Under the pieces are notes generated by a model. The model did not search any database and was not told the DNA's origin. It was given only the letters and a program-made list of their open reading frames with translations. DNA of 29,977 bases from a virus. The translations under genes were made by a program, and so were the position numbers. The first letter of the stretch is position 1. Every line of letters begins with the position of its first letter. Location of the stretch: IMG/VR virus record IMGVR_UViG_3300037088_000308, positions 1-29,977 of that record. One strand, 5' to 3'. This document shows, piece by piece, positions 1,847 through 28,904 of the stretch.

Positions 1847-2437
1847 TTAATTTTCATATTCTGAATAACTGAGAATTTTCGGGACATTCGTTATTTTCCA
1901 TCTTTTTTTAACATCATAATATTCCAATTTAATATGAGAATATTTTTCAAGGTATTTTTTTATGTAATCTAAATATATAAAATCTCTTGATCTATATTTT
2001 CGTCCATTATAGTCACGAATATTAACTTCATAATCGGATGAATTTGGTATTTGTATTGATATAATGTATTTCCCTAATTTGTGTATATCTTTAAATATTC
2101 TTTCTTCGAATTCCCATTCTGTGTTATTCCATAAACTTTTTCCAAATTTTCTTTTATGTGGATTATCATCTTTACTAAATTCATCAATTGATTTTGGAAC
2201 ATAACCATCTAATCTGAGTTTGTTTTGGTTTAATTTTAATCGTGGAAACCAATTATCATCGTAAGTATAACTGGAACTTCTGGTAAGACAAATACAAGAT
2301 TTTCCTATATATGGAGTTTTAATTATTAAAGTATCACAATCTAATATTTTTTCCAAACTATATTTTGTGTAATGATACAAGGGTGGATAGTTACTTTCTA
2401 AATATTTTTCGAATAATAATAAGTATTTCATATTCAT
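1847..2437 (-). CDS. Putative ADP-ribosyltransferase-fold protein with capsid-targeting-like N-terminus
   Basis: 196 aa, or 194 if translation starts at the second ATG (2431). It opens MKYLLLFEKYLES, resembling the T4 capsid-targeting peptide (MKTYQEFIAE), with a possible prohead-protease site L-F-E or Y-L-E. The rest has LYHYT (residues 20-24) before a helix SLEKILDCDTL, then CICLTRSS (48-55), then EWEFEERIF followed by KLGKYIISIQI. This H-x-T / TR / E-x-R order is shared with the 188-aa protein at 26069-26635 and resembles DarT/ART-fold enzymes. I infer a NAD-using ADP-ribosyltransferase, but the assignment is from motif spacing only. The gene sits alone between the recombinase and a divergent gene. 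The 9-mer TAATATATA lies directly before the first ATG (2438-2446, minus). Confidence 0.6.
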   Translation of the reverse strand: MNMKYLLLFEKYLESNYPPLYHYTKYSLEKILDCDTLIIKTPYIGKSCICLTRSSSYTYDDNWFPRLKLNQNKLRLDGYVPKSIDEFSKDDNPHKRKFGKSLWNNTEWEFEERIFKDIHKLGKYIISIQIPNSSDYEVNIRDYNGRKYRSRDFIYLDYIKKYLEKYSHIKLEYYDVKKRWKITNVPKILSYSEYEN

Positions 2438-6457: not shown

Positions 6458-6937
6458 ATGAGTAACATATATACATTAGAAAATGGAACTATTCAAATAG
6501 ATGATGATGGAAATCCAATCACCAATATTATTACACCTCTTGTAGTAACAAATGATACTTTGGTTTTGTATCCACATTTTGTAACAAATGTGGATGAAAT
6601 GAGACCAGATTTGGTTCTTCGTGCAATGTATGGTAATAGTAATTTTATAGATGAAATAATGACATTGAATAATGTGATTGATAGTTTTTCCTTGACTGAG
6701 GGAACATTACTGTGGTATCCAGACCCGACAGACATAGATAAACTAAGAAAAGAACCGTCTACTCAAACTGATCAACAAATTATTGATAGTTTGGTAGATC
6801 CTAATGCAGAAAGAAAAATAACTTATAACAGAGAAACAGGTGAAAATTTATCACCAACTGTTAAACCAACAACATTGAAACAAATTAGTGTAGATACAAA
6901 CAATAATACAATAAAAATAATTAACACTTTAAAATGA
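6458..6937 (+). CDS. LysM-like baseplate protein (gp53/tail protein X type)
   Basis: 159 aa. Residues 46-88 read like a LysM-type tail module: DEMRPDLVLRAMYGNSNF, then EIMTLNNVIDSFSL, then EGTLLWYPDP. This is the familiar order of a helix with YG, a helix ending in N-x-I, and a G-T-x-L-x-Y-P strand. Such modules occur in baseplate wedge or hub proteins (T4 gp53, P2 gpX) and hold hub and tube together or touch peptidoglycan. The C-terminal 60 residues are polar and likely disordered. Its stop overlaps the next start (ATGA, 6934-6937), so it is translationally coupled to the gp27-like hub protein. The A-rich leader AAAAATAAAAATAAAA precedes the ATG. Confidence 0.75.
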   Translation: MSNIYTLENGTIQIDDDGNPITNIITPLVVTNDTLVLYPHFVTNVDEMRPDLVLRAMYGNSNFIDEIMTLNNVIDSFSLTEGTLLWYPDPTDIDKLRKEPSTQTDQQIIDSLVDPNAERKITYNRETGENLSPTVKPTTLKQISVDTNNNTIKIINTLK

Positions 6938-8346
6938 TAAAAAGAATAACATCATCAGATAAGGTTTTAGAAGATTTAACGATATCATATAAACCAGAAG
7001 TTAAGCCAGAAGATGCTATTCAATGGGCAAGTGATATTGGTAAGTTTCCTTATTTGGTGTTTTCATATCTGGATAAATTACTCGTTGAAGCCAAAGATAT
7101 TATTTATTTTAAATTATACGGTGATAAGTATATTCCAGAATTAGAATGTACTTTTAGAGATCCGACTAATAAACTAAATGATTATATGTTTCCTCTTGAT
7201 AAATCAATTGTGAGTTTAATGATAAAGGCAAATTCTGAAAATTTGATGCCTATTCGTTGTGATTTTTATATTAAGAATTTCAATTTAGTCAAAACTGGAA
7301 TGAGAGATGATAAAATTTATAACATGAAATGTATTTTGGATATTCCTATTATTATAAAGAATATGAGTTTTCCAAGTATGACCAGTTTTCAAGTATTACA
7401 ACAAGTGGCAAAAGAAACATTACTTGGTTTTGTAACAAATATAGATGATACAAATGATAGTATGACATGGATAAATCCGGGTGAGGATTATATTAAAGAT
7501 TTTTTACCTGATGTCGTTTCGGAAAGTTATAAAAGTGATGATAGTTTTTTGTGGTCGTTCATTGATTATTACTATAATTTAAATTATATTGATATCGAAA
7601 CAGCTTTGAATGAAGATATTACCAATCAACAAACGATATTAAATTCCAATGACTTGAATGGAACAGAACAAACCATTCCATTGATTTTGTCGAATCACCC
7701 AGATAAAAGATCAAGTAATTTATATATTGATAGATGGAATCTTGATAACGATAGCACCGATATAAACATGGATATAGGGTATGAGCCTTATATTTATTAT
7801 TTCGATGATTTAGGAAAAGATTTTATTCAATTATTACTCGATACAATATCAACCGCTGGGAGTGATCAATCAGCTATTGTCTTGAAACAAAGAAATGATG
7901 ATGTAAATACAAACGCTGGTAATGTTCAACAAAAAAAGAAATATTTTCTTGGTAAAATTGATACAGATAATGTTCATAAAAATATTTTATATGCACAAAA
8001 ACAAAATGAAAACAACATTTTGTCTTTACAAAAAATCAAGATGAATGTCGTTATGCCAAATCCTAATTTTTCCTTGTTCCGTTTCCAACCTGTGGAACTT
8101 GTTTTATATGATTTAACGGATATGGAAACAAAGAAAGGAAAAGATGATCAAAGTGTTGAACAAGTTTACGCTAATGAAAATAAGATAAATAATCGTTTAT
8201 CTGGAAAATGGTTGATAACTGGAATAAATTGGGTTATGGATAAAAGAAATATGCAAAAAGGTGGTCAATCAATTTTTGTACAAGAAGTAACACTGGTTAG
8301 AAGGGAATTAACAACTCTTTATAAACCAAAAAAATTAACAACATAA
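6934..8346 (+). CDS. Baseplate hub protein (gp27-like, inferred)
   Basis: 470-aa soluble structural protein. Sequence alone gives weak homology signals: a beta-rich N-terminal half (ELECTFRDPTNKLNDYMFPL, then PIRCDFYIKNFNLVKTG) followed by a helix-rich hub-like stretch with DSFLWSFIDYYYNLNYIDIE and a C-terminal beta domain ending WLITGINWVMDKRNMQ. Position supports a hub role: it is coupled by 4 nt to the LysM-like gene and lies in the same operon as the gp5-like OB-fold protein, the usual partner of gp27 in T4-like baseplates. Alternative: another baseplate wedge component. No catalytic motif is visible. Confidence 0.65.
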   Translation: MIKRITSSDKVLEDLTISYKPEVKPEDAIQWASDIGKFPYLVFSYLDKLLVEAKDIIYFKLYGDKYIPELECTFRDPTNKLNDYMFPLDKSIVSLMIKANSENLMPIRCDFYIKNFNLVKTGMRDDKIYNMKCILDIPIIIKNMSFPSMTSFQVLQQVAKETLLGFVTNIDDTNDSMTWINPGEDYIKDFLPDVVSESYKSDDSFLWSFIDYYYNLNYIDIETALNEDITNQQTILNSNDLNGTEQTIPLILSNHPDKRSSNLYIDRWNLDNDSTDINMDIGYEPYIYYFDDLGKDFIQLLLDTISTAGSDQSAIVLKQRNDDVNTNAGNVQQKKKYFLGKIDTDNVHKNILYAQKQNENNILSLQKIKMNVVMPNPNFSLFRFQPVELVLYDLTDMETKKGKDDQSVEQVYANENKINNRLSGKWLITGINWVMDKRNMQKGGQSIFVQEVTLVRRELTTLYKPKKLTT

Positions 8347-8350
8347 AATA

Positions 8351-10996
8351 ATGCCAAGTTTAACTAACAATTTTAATAATATTCCGACAAGTGCAAGTAA
8401 TATATCAACGAGTGCTATGGGAATTGGTGGATCAATTAATCAAATGAAAAACCCATCGAATTTTGGTTCAGCTTCAGTAAATTTGGCCAATTCGGCTATA
8501 AATTTAGCCGGTAGTATTACCGATTTACAAAACAGTATAAATGGATTATTTAATGTTGATAAAGATGTGATTAATCAAAATATGAATATAATGCGTGGGA
8601 ATCATTATATCTCAGGATATGAAAGAGTACCAGTTCCACCACTCCCACCAATCGATCCATTTTCACCATCAAATGTATTGGCTGATTTTTTACCACCAGA
8701 AGCTAATGATGTGTTAGGATTAGGACAAGATATTCATACACAACCATTGGTTGAATATGATTTGGAGAATTTCAAATATTTAATGGATAGAACAGATGAC
8801 GCGGATTCTTTCTATGAAGATCCATTATATATGTCTTTTGATATAATATTTGATAGGACAGTATCTCCTTTGTTTAATGGTGAAATTGATAGATTCTTTG
8901 AAGTATACGCTACGAATGATTATTTAAATAAAGCTTGGATTCATTATAAGAAATTTACTCAATTATTTTTTAAAATATTTAATGGAATTGGACCTCAAAA
9001 ATATCAGGTTACAAATGTTCCATTTATGCCTATATCTCCTGTTATGAATAGTGCTGAAATTAAAAGAAATAAGGTTTGGTATATAAATTCTATACTTGGT
9101 TTGGACAAATTAACTGCTAAGATTCCAAAATATACTGAAGATAAATTGACGATAACACTTTCCGAAGATGTCGCTATGTTGGTGAATTACATGATTGATT
9201 CATATAACAATTTCGCATATAATTACGCTCAACAAAGATATAATTTACCAGATAATTTAATGAGATTTAAAATGATGATTCGTTTTTCTGATATGAGAAC
9301 TATGAAATTATTAAATCATTTCGAATCACCTGATTATATGTATGATAAGGCTTCTGAGATTTATACTTTATATGACTGTAACTTTGATTTTTTCAATTCT
9401 AAAAATTTCGGAGATGAAGTTATCAATGGTGGTTTCGGTGTAGCTAAACAAGATAATCCATCTACTGTTAAGTTTGATATTATTTACAAATCAATACAGA
9501 AAGAATTCAGAACACCATTGATCAAAGGTGAAAGAAATAATGTAGTTAATAATAAAGAGGTTGATTCCAATTTATCTTTAACAAATTTATTCAGAGATAA
9601 ATTAGGAAGAACTTTGGAAGAGGAAATTTCAATGCAGGATATTCTCACTGGTGCCTTTGGTGCCGCGACATCGTTGAATAATATGTTACAAAATTATATA
9701 CCTAAATTTCAACCACCATTTCCAAAACTTCCACCAGATCTTTTAGGTGCAGTATACGATAATACAAATAATGAAAATGAATTTTATGGTAGAAGGGGTA
9801 GTATTGGTGAAACAGGTAATAGTCCAGTTGATGAATTAGTAAATGGTGATTTACCTAATGTTGATCCATTATTGGCAAGGAAAAATCTTATAGCAAAATT
9901 CACCTTGGATATGAAAGATAATTTTAATCGAGTTCTTCCTTCTGGAATAGCTGGATTAAATCTTGGTAATGATTATCAACAAATAACAACCGCCCCAAGA
10001 CAACCACATTTGGATTTCGATTATCATAATGACGGAACACCAACTCATGGAGATCTTGGATTTATTTCACTATTTTTAAGACCACCACACACTGGTAGTT
10101 TGGGATTCGATTATACAAATATCGGATTTACTTTTGGTGGTAATTTAGGATTTGATTATACTAACGATGGTTCACCAATTCATGGGGATTTAGGATTTGA
10201 CTATACAAATGATGGTTCACCAATTCACGGTGATCTGGGATTCGACTATACAAACAATGGTTCACCAATTCATGGGGATTTAGGATTCGACTATACAAAT
10301 GATGGAATACCGACACATGGTAACTTAGGAAACGATTACGCTAATATTGGAAGTAGAATTCCTTTAACCAACATTACATTATTCGGTAAGGGAAATAGAA
10401 CGAGTCCATCACTTGGATTTCTTTACACTAATTTATCTGAATTGAGGACAGTTAATTTAAATTCACTTTATGATAATTCGGTTCAAAGAACATATGTACC
10501 TTTGGGTGATTTATATTCTAATTTATCAGTGAAGAATACCAACGATTTAGGTACTGATTTCAGTAATGTTGCTGGAAAACCTGTACCTGAATTGAATCAA
10601 CTTTTCGGTAAAGTAGAAAAACCTCCAGTTGAATTAAATTCATTGTTTACGAATAATGAAAATCAAAAATCAACTCAGGATATGGGTACATTATTCAGTG
10701 GAACAGAAAAACCATCTGTTCAGGATTTAGGAAATGATTTTGCTAATAATGGAATAAGACCAAATACAGATTTGGGATCTGATTTTACAAATACCGATCA
10801 AAAGAGAAATGTTTCTTTGGATAATGTATATGATAATAATTCGATTGGACATAATCAGACCGATCTAAATTCATTATATAATAATGTTATACCACCAAAA
10901 CAAGGATTAGAGGGAGATACAATAGATATTAAAACTACGGAAAAATCAAAACAAGATTTGGGTGAATCCTATGAAAACAATTTAATTGAAGAATGA
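8351..10996 (+). CDS. Large baseplate-operon protein with C-terminal 15-residue repeats
   Basis: 881 aa in two parts. Residues 1-537 start Asn/Ser-rich, contain a Pro-rich turn (PPLPPIDPFSP), then a folded region with SFYEDPLYMSFDIIFDRTVSP and helices. Residues 538-881 are about 23 repeats of near 15 residues, consensus L-G-x-[DL]-[YF]-x-N followed by about eight variable residues ending in D, T or N. Four central copies (10145-10324) are almost identical (LGFDYTNDGSPIHGD). Outer copies are degenerate but keep Leu1, Gly2 and the aromatic at position 5. The protein lies between the hub and spike genes, so it is almost surely a tail or baseplate component. The repeat tail may be a flexible or solenoid extension, possibly a ruler, fibre or receptor contact. 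Its stop overlaps the next start by 4 nt. Confidence 0.8.
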   Translation: MPSLTNNFNNIPTSASNISTSAMGIGGSINQMKNPSNFGSASVNLANSAINLAGSITDLQNSINGLFNVDKDVINQNMNIMRGNHYISGYERVPVPPLPPIDPFSPSNVLADFLPPEANDVLGLGQDIHTQPLVEYDLENFKYLMDRTDDADSFYEDPLYMSFDIIFDRTVSPLFNGEIDRFFEVYATNDYLNKAWIHYKKFTQLFFKIFNGIGPQKYQVTNVPFMPISPVMNSAEIKRNKVWYINSILGLDKLTAKIPKYTEDKLTITLSEDVAMLVNYMIDSYNNFAYNYAQQRYNLPDNLMRFKMMIRFSDMRTMKLLNHFESPDYMYDKASEIYTLYDCNFDFFNSKNFGDEVINGGFGVAKQDNPSTVKFDIIYKSIQKEFRTPLIKGERNNVVNNKEVDSNLSLTNLFRDKLGRTLEEEISMQDILTGAFGAATSLNNMLQNYIPKFQPPFPKLPPDLLGAVYDNTNNENEFYGRRGSIGETGNSPVDELVNGDLPNVDPLLARKNLIAKFTLDMKDNFNRVLPSGIAGLNLGNDYQQITTAPRQPHLDFDYHNDGTPTHGDLGFISLFLRPPHTGSLGFDYTNIGFTFGGNLGFDYTNDGSPIHGDLGFDYTNDGSPIHGDLGFDYTNNGSPIHGDLGFDYTNDGIPTHGNLGNDYANIGSRIPLTNITLFGKGNRTSPSLGFLYTNLSELRTVNLNSLYDNSVQRTYVPLGDLYSNLSVKNTNDLGTDFSNVAGKPVPELNQLFGKVEKPPVELNSLFTNNENQKSTQDMGTLFSGTEKPSVQDLGNDFANNGIRPNTDLGSDFTNTDQKRNVSLDNVYDNNSIGHNQTDLNSLYNNVIPPKQGLEGDTIDIKTTEKSKQDLGESYENNLIEE
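9962..10993 (+). repeat. Array of about 23 repeats of 15 codons within the 881-aa gene
   Basis: Unit length is 45 nt (15 aa), with occasional 14, 16 and 17-residue units. The four perfect-to-near-perfect copies start at 10145, 10190, 10235 and 10280. Copy identity decays outward in both directions, as expected for recent expansion of an old array. Reading frame is kept throughout. Confidence 0.9.
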
Positions 10997-17929: not shown

Positions 17930-19561
17930 TTACATTAATGGTGGTGGACCTTGATGTAGTCCAAATTCATTTTTTTCTTTTATTTCTGATACTACACATT
18001 CCGTAGTTAAGAATAAACCAGCAACAGAGGCCGCATTCTCTAAAGCCACCCTTGCCACTTTCGTTGGGTCAATGATTCCAAGTTCATATAGATTACCGAA
18101 TTTTTCAGTATTAGCATCGTAACCATAATCAATATCAGAAGTTCCTGATTTTACATTTTGTAAAACAACTGAGGATTCTTTTCCCGAATTTTCAACTATT
18201 TTTCTTAGTGGTTCTTCCAAAACTTTACGAATTATATCAACTCCAATCTTTTCATCTTCATTTGAGATTTCCAAATCATCCAGTGAATTTATACATCTTA
18301 TATAAGCAACTCCACCACCGGGAACTATACCTTCTCCAATGGCAGCTTTGGTTGCATGTAGAGCATCATCAAAACGATCTTTCTTTTCTTTCATTTCTAT
18401 TTCACTGGAAGCCCCAACACTTATGACACAAATTCCACCCGTTAAATTGGCCAATCGAGCTTCATTTTTTTCTTTATCATAATCGTTTTTATTGTTTTCT
18501 ATTTGATTTCTTATTTGACTGATTCTTCCAAATACCATTTCAGGATTACCATTTCCACCCATTATTATAGTTGAGTTATTGTTGATTATAATTTTTTCAG
18601 CCATACCTAAATCTTCAAGTTTCATGGTTTCTAATTTTCTACCCATTCCATCGGATATTAAATTTCCACCGGTTAAAACTGCGATATCTTCCAATAAATC
18701 CTTTCTTCTATCTCCGAAGCCGGGAGCTTTTATTGCACAAACTTTTAAATTTCCTTTTACTTTATTATAAACTAATGGTCCGAGTGCTTCGTTTTCGAGG
18801 GTATCAGCAATGATCAAAAGTGGTTTACCTGTCGGAACAACCAATTCGAGGATAGGTAATAAATTATGTATCGATTGTATTTTTTCCTCGTATATAAGAA
18901 TATAAGTGTTCTCAAAAACTGTTTCCATTTTTTCTGTATCCGTGATGAAATAAGGTGAAATATAACCTCTATCGAGTTTCATTCCCTTTACAGTTTTTAT
19001 TGTAGTTTCCATTCCACGAGCCTCTTCAATTGTAATAACACCAGTTAATCCAACATTTTTCATAGCATCAGTAATCATAAAACCTATATCCTTATCATTA
19101 TTGGCACTTATAGTAGCGACTTGTTTTATCTTTTCATAATCAAGACCAATTTCTACTGAAATTTCATTTAATCTTTCAACAACTCTCTTTACCGCTTTAT
19201 CAATTCCTTTTTTCAAATCTATTGGATTTATACCTGTTGTTGTACTTTTTAAACCTTTTTCGACAATAGAACGAGCTAATATTGTTGCGGTAGTTGTACC
19301 ATCACCAGCATCATCAGATGTTTTGGTGGCTGCCTCTTTTATAATTTGACAACCTATATTTTCCAGAGGATCTTCCAGTTCAATTTCTCTTGCGACTGTA
19401 ACACCGTCCTTTGTAATTACTATCCTGAGACCACCACTCTTTTCTATGATGACATTTCTTCCTTTTGGTCCTAAGGTAATACCAACACTATCAGCTATTT
19501 TATTTATCCCTTTCATTAATTTCATTCGGGCTTCAGATCCAAATTCTATATTCTTCTTCAT
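17930..19561 (-). CDS. groEL: Phage-encoded chaperonin GroEL
   Basis: 543-aa group I chaperonin forming double-ring folding chambers. Conserved blocks follow cellular GroEL: GITLGPKGRNV (27-37), KDGVTVAREIEL (51-62), AGDGTTTATILA (85-96, with Asp87), apical RGYISPYFIT and KAPGFGDRRKDLLEDIA, and DALHATKAAIGEGIVPGGG containing the Asp398-equivalent needed for ATP hydrolysis. Apical residues that contact GroES and substrate look conserved. The C-terminus ends GLHQGPPPLM instead of the usual GGM repeats. No co-chaperonin gene is next to it, so it may use host GroES or a phage one elsewhere. It likely folds capsid or tail proteins. The start overlaps the stop of the 64-aa gene by 4 nt. Confidence 0.97.
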   Translation of the reverse strand: MKKNIEFGSEARMKLMKGINKIADSVGITLGPKGRNVIIEKSGGLRIVITKDGVTVAREIELEDPLENIGCQIIKEAATKTSDDAGDGTTTATILARSIVEKGLKSTTTGINPIDLKKGIDKAVKRVVERLNEISVEIGLDYEKIKQVATISANNDKDIGFMITDAMKNVGLTGVITIEEARGMETTIKTVKGMKLDRGYISPYFITDTEKMETVFENTYILIYEEKIQSIHNLLPILELVVPTGKPLLIIADTLENEALGPLVYNKVKGNLKVCAIKAPGFGDRRKDLLEDIAVLTGGNLISDGMGRKLETMKLEDLGMAEKIIINNNSTIIMGGNGNPEMVFGRISQIRNQIENNKNDYDKEKNEARLANLTGGICVISVGASSEIEMKEKKDRFDDALHATKAAIGEGIVPGGGVAYIRCINSLDDLEISNEDEKIGVDIIRKVLEEPLRKIVENSGKESSVVLQNVKSGTSDIDYGYDANTEKFGNLYELGIIDPTKVARVALENAASVAGLFLTTECVVSEIKEKNEFGLHQGPPPLM

Positions 19562-26068: not shown

Positions 26069-26635
26069 TTATTTCAGAATACAAATGATGTTCTTAGAAC
26101 GAATATATTCGTATAATTCTTTTTTAAATTCATCTATTGTTGTATAGTTATCAACATTAAATCCTTTATAAACATTCTTATAAGGTGCAAACCATTTTAT
26201 ATAATCTAATTGTTCTTTTTCTGATGCTTTATCATTATGATATAATTCTATTCTAATAATATATTTAGATATTTTTTCAATACTTTTATTGGTTCTGGTT
26301 TCCATTTCATCAGCTACATTCTTTTTTGGTTTTAGTTTACCATCAAAAAAATCGTCATATGGAAGCAATTTATAATTGTTAGATAATTTATCACCATCAA
26401 CAACCATACAAACTTCCATTGGATAATGTCTATTTTTCCAACCATGAAAAATTTTATCTCGTGTGAAAGAAACTCCATAAAAATCATCACTATTAAAAGA
26501 TGTGGCATCATCTCGAATAGAAGATGTGGCTTTTAAATAATTTTCTTGTAATATAGAATATATTGAAGCAAATGTTGTCCAATGATATAAAATACCAACC
26601 TGCTTTCCTTCAAATATTTTGAAATAGGTAATCAT
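26069..26635 (-). CDS. Putative ADP-ribosyltransferase-fold protein with capsid-targeting-like N-terminus
   Basis: 188 aa, divergent paralogue of the protein at 1847-2437. It begins MITYFKIFEGK, fitting a T4-like capsid-targeting peptide with a possible prohead-protease cut after I-F-E. ILYHWTTFASIYSILQENYL (His18, Thr20) is followed by YGVSFTRDK (56-60), then DEMETRTNKS, and KISKYIIRIELY. This H-x-T / S-x-T-R / E-x-R order is shared with the paralogue and recalls DarT/ART enzymes, which use NAD to modify nucleic acid or protein. The fold call is inferred, not proven. The start overlaps the stop of the Nudix gene by 4 nt (ATGA), so Nudix and ART-like proteins are made together. Confidence 0.6.
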   Translation of the reverse strand: MITYFKIFEGKQVGILYHWTTFASIYSILQENYLKATSSIRDDATSFNSDDFYGVSFTRDKIFHGWKNRHYPMEVCMVVDGDKLSNNYKLLPYDDFFDGKLKPKKNVADEMETRTNKSIEKISKYIIRIELYHNDKASEKEQLDYIKWFAPYKNVYKGFNVDNYTTIDEFKKELYEYIRSKNIICILK

Positions 26636-27150
26636 CTCGCGTATTTTTTAATAGTCTGTAAGGATTTCTGGTCTTTTAATAATCCAGATAGGCCAAAATG
26701 TTTTGGTGATATACCCATCATTTCATTAAATGTGACCCATTTGAATGATTCTGTTTCCCAATCTAATGTTGGTTGATGTTCGTGGTCTAATAGTCCAATG
26801 AAGTTATAATATGTGAAAACATTTTCTTTTCTAAAAACATAAGCAGGGATTAATTGAATATTGCCGTCAAATCCACCTTCTTCCATAAATTCTCTTTTGA
26901 CAACTTCTTCGATGTCTGATTGAGCTTCCCCATGTTCTTCATCAATTTTTCCACCCCAAACTCCCCAAGTATTCGGTTCGTTTACATATCTTGAACGAAA
27001 TGGTAATAAAATTCTACCTGTTTTAGTACATATTGGTAATACACCACCACCAATATTTCCCCAGAAATTTTCACCGGCTTTGTTATGAAACGATGCAAAT
27101 TCTCCACTACCGATTATTTCCTTTAAAAAATTATCAAATTTTGTAATCAT
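26632..27150 (-). CDS. Nudix hydrolase with capsid-targeting-like N-terminus
   Basis: 172 aa. The Nudix fold is shown by GGGVLPICTKTGRILLPFRS, WGVWGGKIDEEHG and the box end KREFMEEGGF (Arg86, Glu87, Glu90, Glu91), then FTYYNFIGLL and ESFKWVTFNEM. The box has about three extra residues between GE (74-75) and RE compared with the usual spacing, but the metal-binding glutamates are kept. Nudix enzymes cleave nucleoside diphosphate-X compounds such as ADP-ribose, NAD or RNA caps. The substrate is not readable here. The N-terminus MITKFDNFLKEI resembles the capsid-targeting peptides of its neighbours, with L-K-E as a possible cut site. It precedes the ART-like gene with a 4-nt overlap, so the two probably act on linked chemistry. 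Confidence 0.85.
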   Translation of the reverse strand: MITKFDNFLKEIIGSGEFASFHNKAGENFWGNIGGGVLPICTKTGRILLPFRSRYVNEPNTWGVWGGKIDEEHGEAQSDIEEVVKREFMEEGGFDGNIQLIPAYVFRKENVFTYYNFIGLLDHEHQPTLDWETESFKWVTFNEMMGISPKHFGLSGLLKDQKSLQTIKKYAR

Positions 27151-27164
27151 AAGTGTATATATTA

Positions 27165-27195
27165 TTTTTTAATTCAAATAAATGTGGTAAATTTG
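27165..27195 (+). promoter_or_regulatory. Variant early-type promoter: TTTTTTAATT plus TAAATTTG
   Basis: TTTTTTAATT (27165-27174), 13-nt spacer, TAAATTTG (27188-27195). The T-tract is one T short and reads AATT instead of ATT, but layout matches the other early-type promoters. With the late-type box at 27214 it would give this gene two promoters in tandem. Confidence 0.5.
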
Positions 27196-27213
27196 TAGTT
27201 CAGTTTTCATTTT

Positions 27214-27222
27214 TAATATATA
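27214..27222 (+). promoter_or_regulatory. Late-type promoter box TAATATATA
   Basis: TTCATTTT-TAATATATAT (27207-27223), nearly identical to 2472-2490. The box ends 23 nt before ATG 27246, and this spacing argues that the gene starts there and not at 27222 or 27153. Confidence 0.5.
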
Positions 27223-27245
27223 TGAAAAAAGATTCCGACAAGAAT

Positions 27246-28679
27246 ATGATAATCACCTTTAAACTTTTCGAAGCCATGTCAGAAACAACCCCCTCTTATC
27301 TCATGACCTTATCAGAGTATAAGGAAAAAGTTTCTCCCATTTTGAAAGCCTTTTATAAGTTTCTTAAAAAGAATACTGATTATCTGAAACCTTCTTCATA
27401 TTATGGGGTTTATCATACTACTTATGATGAATACATGGAAAAGGAAAAGGAAAAGGATGAAAAATCATATCCGGGATCATGGATTAAATGGGCTAAAAAG
27501 CATGCCGAAGGAAATTGGCCGAATGGTAAACAAGCACCAAAGGAAGTAATGGATACTTATCATGATTATCTCAATACTCTTTCAAAAATATTCGGCCAGT
27601 CAGATCTTGAAAAGATCGAAAGTGATGAAACAAATTCAAATAAAAGGTCTGTCAGGAGAGCTCTTGATGACGGAATTTATGTGGAAATGTTGAAAGATGG
27701 TAAGATAGAATATCCAAAATTCGAAGAAATATTATCATCAGTTGGTTTGAAGATCCCGGCTGGATTCAATAAAAAAATTAATTTCAAACCCCCAACACCT
27801 AAACCTATTGAAAAAACCGAAGAAGAAAAAACTCTTATTCTCAAAAGAATAAAAACCGCATTTGATGGTTTCAGAGCGAGAGGCGTTAGTGCTTTTAATA
27901 TCGGCCCACGAATGACCAAGAATATGTATCATATTTCTTATAGTGATGTTTCGATGTTTAAATATGTCGTTGATCATTGGAATTTTTTGAATCCAGAACA
28001 AATTAAAGAACTTGAAAGTCAAGGTGAATATTTGAATTTAATTAAGAGAGTTAAACAATATGTGGCTAAAGCAGGTGAAAAGAATATTGATTTCGCTGAA
28101 GATTCAGTTTATTCAAAAATTATCGAAGAAGTAAAAGTAGCCATTCAACCATCAATTGACGAACATAAAGAAGAAATTAAAGAGAAAATTTTAAGAAAAC
28201 AAGATTTCATAAGAAAAGAAAAAGAAACCTTATCTGAAAAAGAATTCGAAGAAAAATGGGCGGTCAAAGATTATGACAGAAAAGGAAATGTAATTGGATA
28301 CGATATCGAGGAATTTTATAAAAGAACTCTTGAAGGTAAATTACTCGGATGGGATGAATGGGAAACCAACAAATATATTAAAGAACAACAGGACGCTTAT
28401 CAAGATAGAGAACATGGTAAACTTAATCTTTTATTCTATAAATTAAAAACCAGATATCCAACCATTAACGAATTTAAATTTGGTGATGTTTCTAAGCGTA
28501 GAACTGGTCTTGAATTTCATATCACTGGTTACGATTCAAATGATGTTATTTATCGTATCGACACAAATACCATTTTCGCTGGTGGATGGAATATTCAGGT
28601 ATACCATATGAGATGGTTGATGTCTGTTTATGTTGGAAATGAAAGAGTAGCGGTATTCAAATCAGAAAATCAATCTTAA
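27246..28679 (+). CDS. Large hypothetical protein, 477 aa, candidate internal virion protein
   Basis: With ATG 27246 it begins MIITFKLFEAMSE, a capsid-targeting-like peptide with L-F-E as a possible prohead-protease site. The frame is open further upstream (27153 and 27222), but those starts would lie across the promoter boxes. The body is very rich in Lys and Glu, with long helices (EKEKEKDEKS, HKEEIKEKILRKQDFIRKEK) and a more folded C-terminus (TGLEFHITGYDSNDVIYRID, then VYHMRWLMSVYVGNERV). No known domain or catalytic motif is seen. High charge and the N-terminal peptide fit a packaged internal protein like T4 IPs or Alt. The stop abuts the convergent 74-aa gene. Confidence 0.75.
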   Translation: MIITFKLFEAMSETTPSYLMTLSEYKEKVSPILKAFYKFLKKNTDYLKPSSYYGVYHTTYDEYMEKEKEKDEKSYPGSWIKWAKKHAEGNWPNGKQAPKEVMDTYHDYLNTLSKIFGQSDLEKIESDETNSNKRSVRRALDDGIYVEMLKDGKIEYPKFEEILSSVGLKIPAGFNKKINFKPPTPKPIEKTEEEKTLILKRIKTAFDGFRARGVSAFNIGPRMTKNMYHISYSDVSMFKYVVDHWNFLNPEQIKELESQGEYLNLIKRVKQYVAKAGEKNIDFAEDSVYSKIIEEVKVAIQPSIDEHKEEIKEKILRKQDFIRKEKETLSEKEFEEKWAVKDYDRKGNVIGYDIEEFYKRTLEGKLLGWDEWETNKYIKEQQDAYQDREHGKLNLLFYKLKTRYPTINEFKFGDVSKRRTGLEFHITGYDSNDVIYRIDTNTIFAGGWNIQVYHMRWLMSVYVGNERVAVFKSENQS

Positions 28680-28904
28680 TCATTTTCTTACTGAATTTAC
28701 ATACAATTCTCTTTGTTCCATACGACTTCTATGAGCGTTGTGGACTAAATTTAAAGAAGATTGAATTAATTCTTCCTTGTTAGGATCATCATCTGGTAAA
28801 TTACTTACAAACATTAAACGAACCGCATACATTTGTTCAAGTCTTTGATATTTGATCCAGCCTTTTAATGATTGATATTCTTCAAATTTCTGTAACATTT
28901 TCAA
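28680..28904 (-). CDS. Hypothetical protein, 74 aa
   Basis: Short helical protein with N-terminus MKMLQKFEEYQSLKGW, the closest in this window to the T4 capsid-targeting form MKTYQEFIAE. The rest is Arg/Glu-rich (HRSRMEQRELYVNSVRK). No family recognised. It overlaps the upstream 159-aa gene by 23 nt and abuts the convergent 477-aa gene at its stop. Confidence 0.65.
   Translation of the reverse strand: MKMLQKFEEYQSLKGWIKYQRLEQMYAVRLMFVSNLPDDDPNKEELIQSSLNLVHNAHRSRMEQRELYVNSVRK

What the first reader, a model, noticed from the sequence alone, without database searches (positions are those of the whole stretch)
26069..28904. Candidate injected-effector module: ART-like, Nudix and internal protein sharing a capsid-targeting-like peptide
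Five otherwise unrelated proteins begin with M-x-x-[FLY]-x-x-F-[EL]: MKYLLLFEKYLE (2431), MITYFKIFEGK (26635), MITKFDNFLKE (27150), MIITFKLFEAM (27246) and MKMLQKFEEYQ (28904). In T4, MKTYQEFIAE-type peptides send internal proteins into the prohead and are removed by gp21 at [LI]-x-E. L-F-E, I-F-E, L-K-E and Y-L-E occur at the right place here. T4 likewise packages an ADP-ribosyltransferase (Alt). I infer that these proteins are packaged and injected. The 4-nt overlap of the Nudix and ART-like genes suggests linked ADP-ribose/NAD chemistry.
Basis: partly seen in the sequence, partly recalled or inferred. Interest (0 to 1): 0.8.

Follow-up and report, generated by a model that had tools for sequence, protein, structure and literature searches.

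The report
Shared address tag on phage cargo proteins

Summary
The window is identical to part of an 85.9-kb contig (G001) from a relative of the 735-kb phage LR756501. The idea behind it holds. A pattern taken from T4's capsid-targeting sequence (aromatic-x-x-aromatic-[ILV]-x-E) is enriched at N-termini over internal methionines: 7/122 vs 1/480 in G001, 51/1001 vs 15/3789 in LR756501, 23/916 vs 7/2638 in LR756504; a short form (..[IL]FE) gives 3, 16 and 9 vs 0.

A second contig from the same metagenome (G013; near-identical tetranucleotide usage, complementary genes) encodes portal, major head protein and a gp21-type protease. In this clade that protease is fused to 14-residue repeats (YSEYIAE...), each a copy of the tag core; T4 gp21 and gp22 have none. 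G013 has three more tagged ART-like proteins.

Best reading: a T4-like capsid-targeting/cleavage tag loading many proteins, probably including injected NAD/ADP-ribose enzymes. Packaging, cleavage and injection are inferred. One proteomics test (PA5oct) was uninformative; the Atu_ph07 test was partly supportive.

The parts
26069..26635 (-). ART-like protein P0001, 188 aa, short-form tag MITYFKIFE then YHWT...SFTR...E
   Evidence: AlphaFold model pLDDT 59.8; best VIA-align rows Tpt1/KptA/DarT, Z 7.8 to 4.6; homologue with tag MKYIKIFE in the 636-kb phage
26609..26635 (-). N-terminal tag of P0001 (MITYFKIFE); predicted cleavage after IFE
   Evidence: sequence; short-form regex B 3/122 vs 0/480 in G001
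26632..27150 (-). Nudix hydrolase P0002, 172 aa, 4-nt overlap with P0001
   Evidence: Pfam NUDIX E 6e-10; phrog_1198 E 1.5e-14
27118..27150 (-). N-terminal tag of the Nudix (MITKFDNFLKE): F5-x-x-F8-L9-x-E11, same spacing as T4 Y4-x-x-F7-I8-x-E10
   Evidence: matches T4-derived pattern A0; RaK2 and GAP32 Nudix homologues begin at the Nudix domain without this leader
27246..28679 (+). 477-aa protein P0003 with no relatives found, tag MIITFKLFE if started at 27246 (alternative ATG at 27222)
   Evidence: no hit in phages or, beyond its own contig, in viral contigs; model pLDDT 41, not usable
27246..27272 (+). short-form tag of P0003
   Evidence: start codon choice not certain
1847..2431 (-). second ART-like protein P0005, 194 aa, tag MKYLLLFE (start 2431; alternative ATG 2437)
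   Evidence: same family as P0001; homologue in the 636-kb phage
2408..2431 (-). short-form tag of P0005 (MKYLLLFE)
28680..28904 (-).
   Evidence: TTG start, no [ILV]-x-E

Best explanation
The tag is a capsid-targeting and cleavage peptide of the T4 internal-protein type. During head assembly the aromatic-x-x-aromatic-[ILV]-x-E peptide docks a protein onto the assembly core. In this clade the core probably includes the 14-residue repeat array fused to the S77 (gp21-type) protease, whose repeats carry the same core sequence. The protease then cuts after E, in tag and scaffold alike, freeing the cargo in the head. Cargo includes NAD/ADP-ribose enzymes (two ART-like proteins and a Nudix in the window; three further ART-like in the sister contig), which are most likely ejected into the host with the DNA. 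SHOWN by sequence: the tag, its enrichment, the protease with intact catalytic motifs, the repeat array. INFERRED: docking, cleavage, packaging, ejection, activity.
For: T4-derived pattern at N-terminus vs internal Met: G001 7/122 vs 1/480; G013 13/180 vs 3/567; LR756501 51/1001 vs 15/3789; LR756504 23/916 vs 7/2638; LR756500 (400 of 462 kb) 19/535 vs 1/1574; LR756502 (400 of 642 kb) 20/579 vs 8/1960. In T4 the same pattern picks 4 of 255, including ipII and ipIII. Positions not fixed by the pattern are also biased: the residue before E is N in 27 and K in 14 of 51 in LR756501, and synonymous codons vary. Protease: GE[FL]DHP and SSR surroundings of gp21 kept; 8 to 14 core copies in most of the clade, mostly exactly 14 residues apart, vs shuffle means 0.1-0.2; 0 in T4 gp21 and gp22, and 0 in the S77 loci of PTm1, RaK2, PA5oct, GAP32, Atu_ph07, SP-15 and Slickus, of which the three tested whole or in part (PTm1, PA5oct, Atu_ph07) show no tag enrichment. 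G013, same metagenome as the window's contig: tetranucleotide correlation 0.998, L1 distance 0.046 against 0.197 or more for the other records; portal, major head protein and protease identified. Nudix homologues without leader. T4 CTS residues 4, 7 (targeting) and 8, 10 (processing): PMC9026906 passages.
Against: No virion proteomics for this clade. In PA5oct, where proteins seen by mass spectrometry are marked, the T4-derived pattern is absent (0/88 and 0/249) and a loose [ILV]-x-E leader does not predict virion proteins (17/88 vs 52/249). The pattern misses two of T4's own packaged proteins, IPI and Alt, so it is not a complete rule. The tag is poorly kept between distant orthologues: of 519 reciprocal-best pairs, both tagged in 2, one tagged in 9. 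The regexes catch false positives: judging by eye, a TonB-type protein and a histidine kinase in LR756501, and internal sequence resembling ribonucleotide reductase in the IMG/VR DNA scan. A leader with [ILV]-x-E alone is weak evidence, since 33-44% of genes in these AT-rich genomes have one. The link of G013 to the window's phage rests on composition and gene complementarity; its protease lacks the N-terminal LI[VI]E seen in LR756501 and LR756504. My prediction that LR756500, whose protease repeats are degenerate (2 core copies), would have fewer tags failed.
Confidence: 0.72

Rival explanations
1. The tagged proteins are packaged and cut, but many are core, scaffold-associated or structural parts rather than injected effectors; the enzymes act in head assembly or are passengers.
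For: Some tagged genes occur near portal, protease and head-protein genes in LR756501 and G010 (by eye); few tagged proteins have a known domain. T4 core proteins gp22, gp67 and gp68 are also cut and mostly lost (passages).
Against: ART-like and Nudix domains have no obvious structural role; in T4 the best-studied tagged proteins (IPs, Alt) are ejected (passages). Tagged genes are scattered over the whole genome.
Confidence: 0.3
2. The peptide is an N-terminal signal for some other destination or for stability (for example a phage-made compartment), not for the head.
For: Only sequence is available; the tag is on many proteins of unknown function.
Against: Residue spacing matches T4's mapped capsid-targeting peptide, and in the gene sets the only proteins with five or more copies of the same core are the head protease fusions plus one 1691-aa protein of LR756501.
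Confidence: 0.12
3. The resemblance is chance from AT-rich composition (many K, I, N, F, Y).
Against: Internal-methionine control in the same proteins gives rates about 8 to 56 times lower in G001, G013 and the four huge genomes; the short form is 28 vs 0 over G001, LR756501 and LR756504.
Confidence: 0.02

Closest known systems
Bacteriophage T4 capsid-targeting sequence of internal proteins IPI-III and Alt, with gp21 protease
   Same: N-terminal peptide of about 10-13 residues, aromatic-x-x-aromatic-[ILV]-x-E (IPII, IPIII), shared by unrelated proteins; gp21-type S77 protease with conserved His and Ser motifs; one T4 cargo (Alt) is an ADP-ribosyltransferase
   Different: Tens of tagged genes per genome instead of a handful; a short ..[IL]FE form; protease fused to a 14-residue repeat array with the tag core, of which T4 gp21 and gp22 have no copy
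phiKZ/SPN3US-type giant phage head propeptides
   Same: Prohead protease and many ejected head proteins
   Different: Several of those propeptides exceed 100 residues (PMC5694885 passages); here they are about 8-16 residues
Predicted head-packaged ARTs and Nudix of myoviruses (PMC9503650, abstract and passages)
   Same: ART and Nudix proteins proposed to be packaged and injected
   Different: In the passages I saw, that proposal rests on domain fusions and gene neighbourhood; here a peptide tag and a matching protease are the evidence
Agrobacterium phage Atu_ph07 virion cluster CDS 31-76
   Same: Ten tandem paralogues begin M[KR]WxxLxE inside a cluster with 29 proteins found by mass spectrometry
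   Different: Different tag consensus; which of the 46 were detected is not visible to me

Membership tests
T4-type capsid-targeting sequence | Aromatic-x-x-aromatic-[ILV]-x-E at the N-terminus | tested here: met
   Nudix MITKFDNFLKE; genome-wide enrichment. P0001, P0003 and P0005 meet only the short [IL]FE form; the 74-aa ORF meets neither
T4-type capsid-targeting sequence | gp21-type (S77) protease in the same phage | tested here: inconclusive
   Not found in G001, a fragment in which no head gene was found; present in G013, linked to the same phage by composition and gene complement only, and in LR756500, LR756501, LR756502, LR756504, LR745206 (4 of these 5 under Pfam's cut-off)
T4-type capsid-targeting sequence | Cleavage after E during head maturation | not testable with these tools
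   needs N-terminal mass spectrometry or protease assay
T4-type capsid-targeting sequence | Protein present in virion and ejected | not testable with these tools
   no proteome for this clade; PA5oct uninformative
ADP-ribosyltransferase superfamily (P0001) | ART fold | tested here: inconclusive
   Low-confidence model (pLDDT 59.8); Foldseek best E 0.16; VIA-align top rows Tpt1/KptA/DarT, Z 7.8 at best, below the level the tool calls safe; no Pfam match
ADP-ribosyltransferase superfamily (P0001) | Conserved H-x-T, T-R and E positions in the family | tested here: met
   H18, T20, R59, E112 invariant in six homologues; their catalytic role is inference
Nudix hydrolase (P0002) | NUDIX domain over the curated cut-off | tested here: met
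   39.7 bits vs cut-off 21.1

The most novel reading that the evidence does not exclude
The largest known phages use one short peptide address, identical in core to the repeat unit of their protease-fused scaffold, to load tens of different proteins into each head. The address is a copied scaffold repeat, so any gene can become cargo by gaining about ten codons, making the head a general delivery vehicle for a large first-strike arsenal that includes several ADP-ribosyltransferases.
Probability: 0.55. Interest if true: 0.87.

Novelty: new variant of a known kind. Interest (0 to 1): 0.74.

Why it matters
It would give a sequence rule for predicting which of the hundreds of unknown proteins of giant phages are packaged and injected, a question now answered mainly by virion proteomics. 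It would also point to a mechanism (cargo mimics the scaffold repeat) and to a store of early host-takeover and counter-defence proteins. I saw no description of it in the listings of the searches I ran (one search was swamped by unrelated words), which cover open-licence PubMed Central papers only.

Tried and rejected
PA5oct virion proteome as a test (250 of 287 kb, 88 of 89 marked genes matched): pattern absent, loose form not predictive. Orthologue conservation of the tag: 2 of 519 reciprocal pairs both tagged, 9 with one tagged. Prediction that degenerate protease repeats go with fewer tags: failed for LR756500. LxE-leader argument for the ART family: by eye all 10 distinct full members found carry one (an 11th hit, cut by a locus end, was dropped), but the background is 33-44%, so it is weak. 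Structure of P0003: useless model. PDB sequence searches of P0001, P0002 and the ART alignment: nothing at the limits used. Scans for viral-contig relatives of P0003 and P0005 found only their own contig; of a Slickus relative, none. Major head protein cleavage site: an [MI]-x-E candidate in two huge phages is not kept in G013.

Limits of the counts: genes are my own longest-ORF calls with first ATG (not curated); Fisher tests treat genes as independent; pattern A0 was written after seeing G001 but from T4's published positions, and misses T4 IPI and Alt; form B was written after seeing G001. One of the four T4 hits lies in my upstream extension of gene 61.4. Sets not significant: G002 0/28, G003 1/35, G004 1/23, G006 2/64 vs 0/191, PTm1 2/301 vs 2/1023, MaF61 (160 of 168 kb) 0/174, PA5oct 0/337, Atu_ph07 (100 of 490 kb) 0/137; G005 4/180 vs 0/614 and G010 3/79 vs 0/403 are significant. 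The S77 matches of G005 (157-aa ORF) and the second of LR756501 are weak and carry no array.
Full report
What the window is. The window equals positions 36654-66630 (reverse strand) of the 85.9-kb viral contig IMGVR_UViG_3300037087_000150, called G001 here. Its protein at 6934-8346 is 46.7% identical to one in LR756501, a 735-kb phage, and less so to ones in other 460-640-kb phages and in Flavobacterium, Tenacibaculum and Chryseobacterium phages. I recall these huge genomes as 'Mahaphages'; that name for these accessions comes from no call. Of ten G001 proteins scanned none was a head gene, and no S77 protease was found, so I take it for a fragment.

The observation. Coordinates and peptides are right. 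The written motif fits only two of five peptides; with one residue of slack all five fit. Four of the five carry a tag that stands up: the Nudix has the full form (F-x-x-F-L-x-E, same spacing as T4 Y-x-x-F-I-x-E), and P0001, P0003 and P0005 have a short form ending [IL]FE. For P0003 and P0005 this depends on a downstream start codon. The 74-aa ORF has neither and I drop it.

Is it more than chance? I wrote the pattern ^M.{1,9}[FYW]..[FYW][ILV].E from the T4 residues that mutants showed to matter (4 and 7 for targeting, 8 and 10 for processing; passages of PMC9026906). As control I used the same pattern started at internal methionines of the same proteins. N-terminal against internal: G001 7/122 vs 1/480 (p 8e-5); LR756501 51/1001 vs 15/3789 (8e-23); LR756504 23/916 vs 7/2638 (7e-9); LR756502, 400 of 642 kb, 20/579 vs 8/1960 (5e-8); LR756500, 400 of 462 kb, 19/535 vs 1/1574 (6e-11); G013 13/180 vs 3/567 (2e-6). 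The short form gives 3/122, 16/1001 and 9/916 against 0 in the first three, 7/579 vs 1/1960 in LR756502, 6/180 vs 0/567 in G013, and is not enriched in LR756500 (1/535 vs 1/1574). In T4 the pattern finds 4 of 255: ipII, ipIII, 61.1 and an upstream extension of 61.4; it misses IPI and Alt. It is not enriched in PTm1, MaF61, PA5oct or the part of Atu_ph07 held. Free positions agree too: in LR756501 the residue before E is N (27 of 51) or K (14 of 51), the next is A or S in 21 of 51, and codons vary synonymously, so selection is on the peptide.

What carries it. Eleven G001 genes that I recognise as cytoplasmic or replicative (DNA polymerase and ribonucleotide reductase; GroEL, clamp loader, SbcC-like and others by eye) lack the tag, as do the topoisomerase and RecA-like genes. 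Of the 67 tagged LR756501 proteins (either form) 65 were scanned: 34 Pfam families were hit, the 25 shown each by one member; several of these families overlap in one protein, so probably most tagged proteins have no Pfam domain. By eye a TonB-type protein and a histidine kinase among them are false positives of the short form. Six Nudix homologues were looked at: RaK2 and GAP32 begin at the Nudix domain, so the window's Nudix has a leader of about 30 residues that they lack; PA5oct's annotated start is inside the domain; SCTP-2 has another leader containing LFE; BcepSauron has a leader without [ILV]-x-E; in Tunturi_5 the domain lies inside a much larger protein. P0001 and P0005 belong to one family with members in LR756504 (two), SCTP-2, SP-15 and Slickus (four in tandem). 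AlphaFold gave P0001 a low-confidence model (pLDDT 59.8, four sequences). Foldseek found nothing significant (best E 0.16, a Tpt1), but the realignment of its list put Tpt1/KptA and DarT structures in the first 18 rows, Z 7.8 to 4.6 (three of them identified by me from code or title rather than named as such). The tool warns that Z under 8 may mean only a common arrangement. I read this as ART-like, not proven.

The protease and its array. LR756501, LR756502, LR756504, LR745206, LR756500 and G010 have an S77 match, the first four below Pfam's curated score. Alignment of three of them (LR756501, LR756504, G010) with T4 gp21 shows both catalytic surroundings kept (GE[FL]DHP, SSR) and, in LR756501 and LR756504, an LI[VI]E near the N-terminus like gp21's LIE (LIE-9 of gp21). 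G013 lacks that E. C-terminal to the protease lies a run of 14-residue repeats, typically YSEYIAENLDKSID. Counting the tag core [FYW]..[FYW][ILV].E in the stretch held: 13 copies in LR756501 (14 in the whole protein), 11 in LR756504, LR756502 and LR745206, 8 in G010, 2 in LR756500, against shuffle means of 0.1-0.2; spacing is mostly 14. The nine S77 loci found in IMG/VR contigs that hold the tag's DNA pattern (9 of 13 contigs asked) gave 14, 11, 11, 10, 8, 8, 8, 6 and 2 copies, one of the eights being G013. T4 gp21 and gp22 have none, nor has any ORF at the S77 loci of PTm1, RaK2, PA5oct, GAP32, Atu_ph07, SP-15 or Slickus; one ORF beside SCTP-2's has one. In the gene sets one other protein, of 1691 residues in LR756501, has five or more copies. 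That the array acts as scaffold is inference from its fusion to the protease and from T4's gp22 being cut by gp21.

The phage's own protease. G013 (110 kb) comes from the same metagenome as G001. Its tetranucleotide usage correlates 0.998 with G001 (L1 distance 0.046; next record 0.197; in 20 comparisons shown, 85-kb pieces of LR756501 differ from each other by 0.05-0.31). Best hits in LR756501 average 52.8% identity for 41 G001 genes and 52.0% for 54 G013 genes, and the two contigs hit different genes except two targets; four partial protein similarities link them directly. G013 encodes portal (phrog_213, 7.5e-61), major head protein (phrog_138, 2.4e-26) and the protease (phrog_207, 8.4e-25) with eight or nine core copies. 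It has 18 tagged genes of 180, among them two adjacent relatives of P0001 (MIKEFKIFE, MITDFKIFE; hmmsearch 2e-16 and 1e-15) and a third protein MIKKFKIFE... with a sub-threshold ART-PolyVal match (3.6e-6, 28.2 vs 31.2 bits). I take G013 as probably the same phage; assembly would settle it.

External tests. In PA5oct, whose record marks proteins seen by mass spectrometry, the pattern is absent and a loose form has no predictive value, so it tests nothing for this tag and shows that not every S77 phage uses it. In Atu_ph07 the paper places most virion proteins in three clusters; CDS 31-76, with 29 detected (passages of PMC6102473), holds 16 of 46 genes with an M[KRI]..[ILVF]-x-E start against 3 of the other 86 CDS in the 132 of 714 that I held (p 3e-6), but ten of the 16 are one tandem family.

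How it most likely works. Shown: tag, enrichment, protease, repeat array. Inferred: the tag docks cargo to the core as a copy of the array's repeat, the protease cuts after E in both, the cargo stays in the head and at least some is ejected. In T4 the internal proteins are ejected and IPI-III each counter a host restriction enzyme (passages of PMC9026906, PMC12373910, PMC9391042). Packaging of ARTs and Nudix proteins in myoviruses has been predicted from fusions and gene context (PMC9503650 abstract and passages). New here, as far as my searches reach, are the scale, the short form, and the match between tag and protease-fused repeat.

Verdict. It works like the T4 system as far as sequence can show; membership in the sense of shown packaging and cleavage is untested.

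Noticed in passing
LR756501, loci L045-L081: A second recurrent peptide, DPYGEE-x-W, occurs 106 times (DP[YF]GEE) in about 1001 ORFs, 41 within 20 residues of the C-terminus, 29 in tagged proteins. Synonymous codons vary, though with strong preferences, and 106 of 109 DNA-level matches are in frame. Absent from the other eleven gene sets; among phage records found only in LR756501 and LR756503, and in three IMG/VR loci (L148, L199, L224).
   Followed up: partly
L278, T4 gene 61.1 (record 18966-19130): T4 gp61.1 starts MKTFKEFIKED, fitting the capsid-targeting pattern; candidate unrecognised internal protein.
   Followed up: no
L288 39484-49507: Atu_ph07 CDS 53-62: ten tandem paralogues starting M[KR]WxxLxE with a YRG[MI] motif about 40 residues in, inside the virion cluster; no Pfam match for the two scanned.
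   Followed up: partly
L008 1662-5531: Alishewanella phage Slickus01 has four tandem ART-like relatives of P0001 with a shared leader LY[ED]S[LI]LEEG.
   Followed up: no
L318 15130-16670 (G013 95130-96673): Two adjacent tagged ART-like genes overlap by 4 nt, the same arrangement as Nudix/ART in the window.
   Followed up: no
L282 304-1716 and beyond: In Tunturiibacter phage Tunturi_5 the Nudix relative is part of a very large protein directly after a minor head protein gene.
   Followed up: no
window 10099-10305: Near-exact repeats (LGFDYTNDGSPIHGD units) inside the 881-aa protein at 8351-10996.
   Followed up: no
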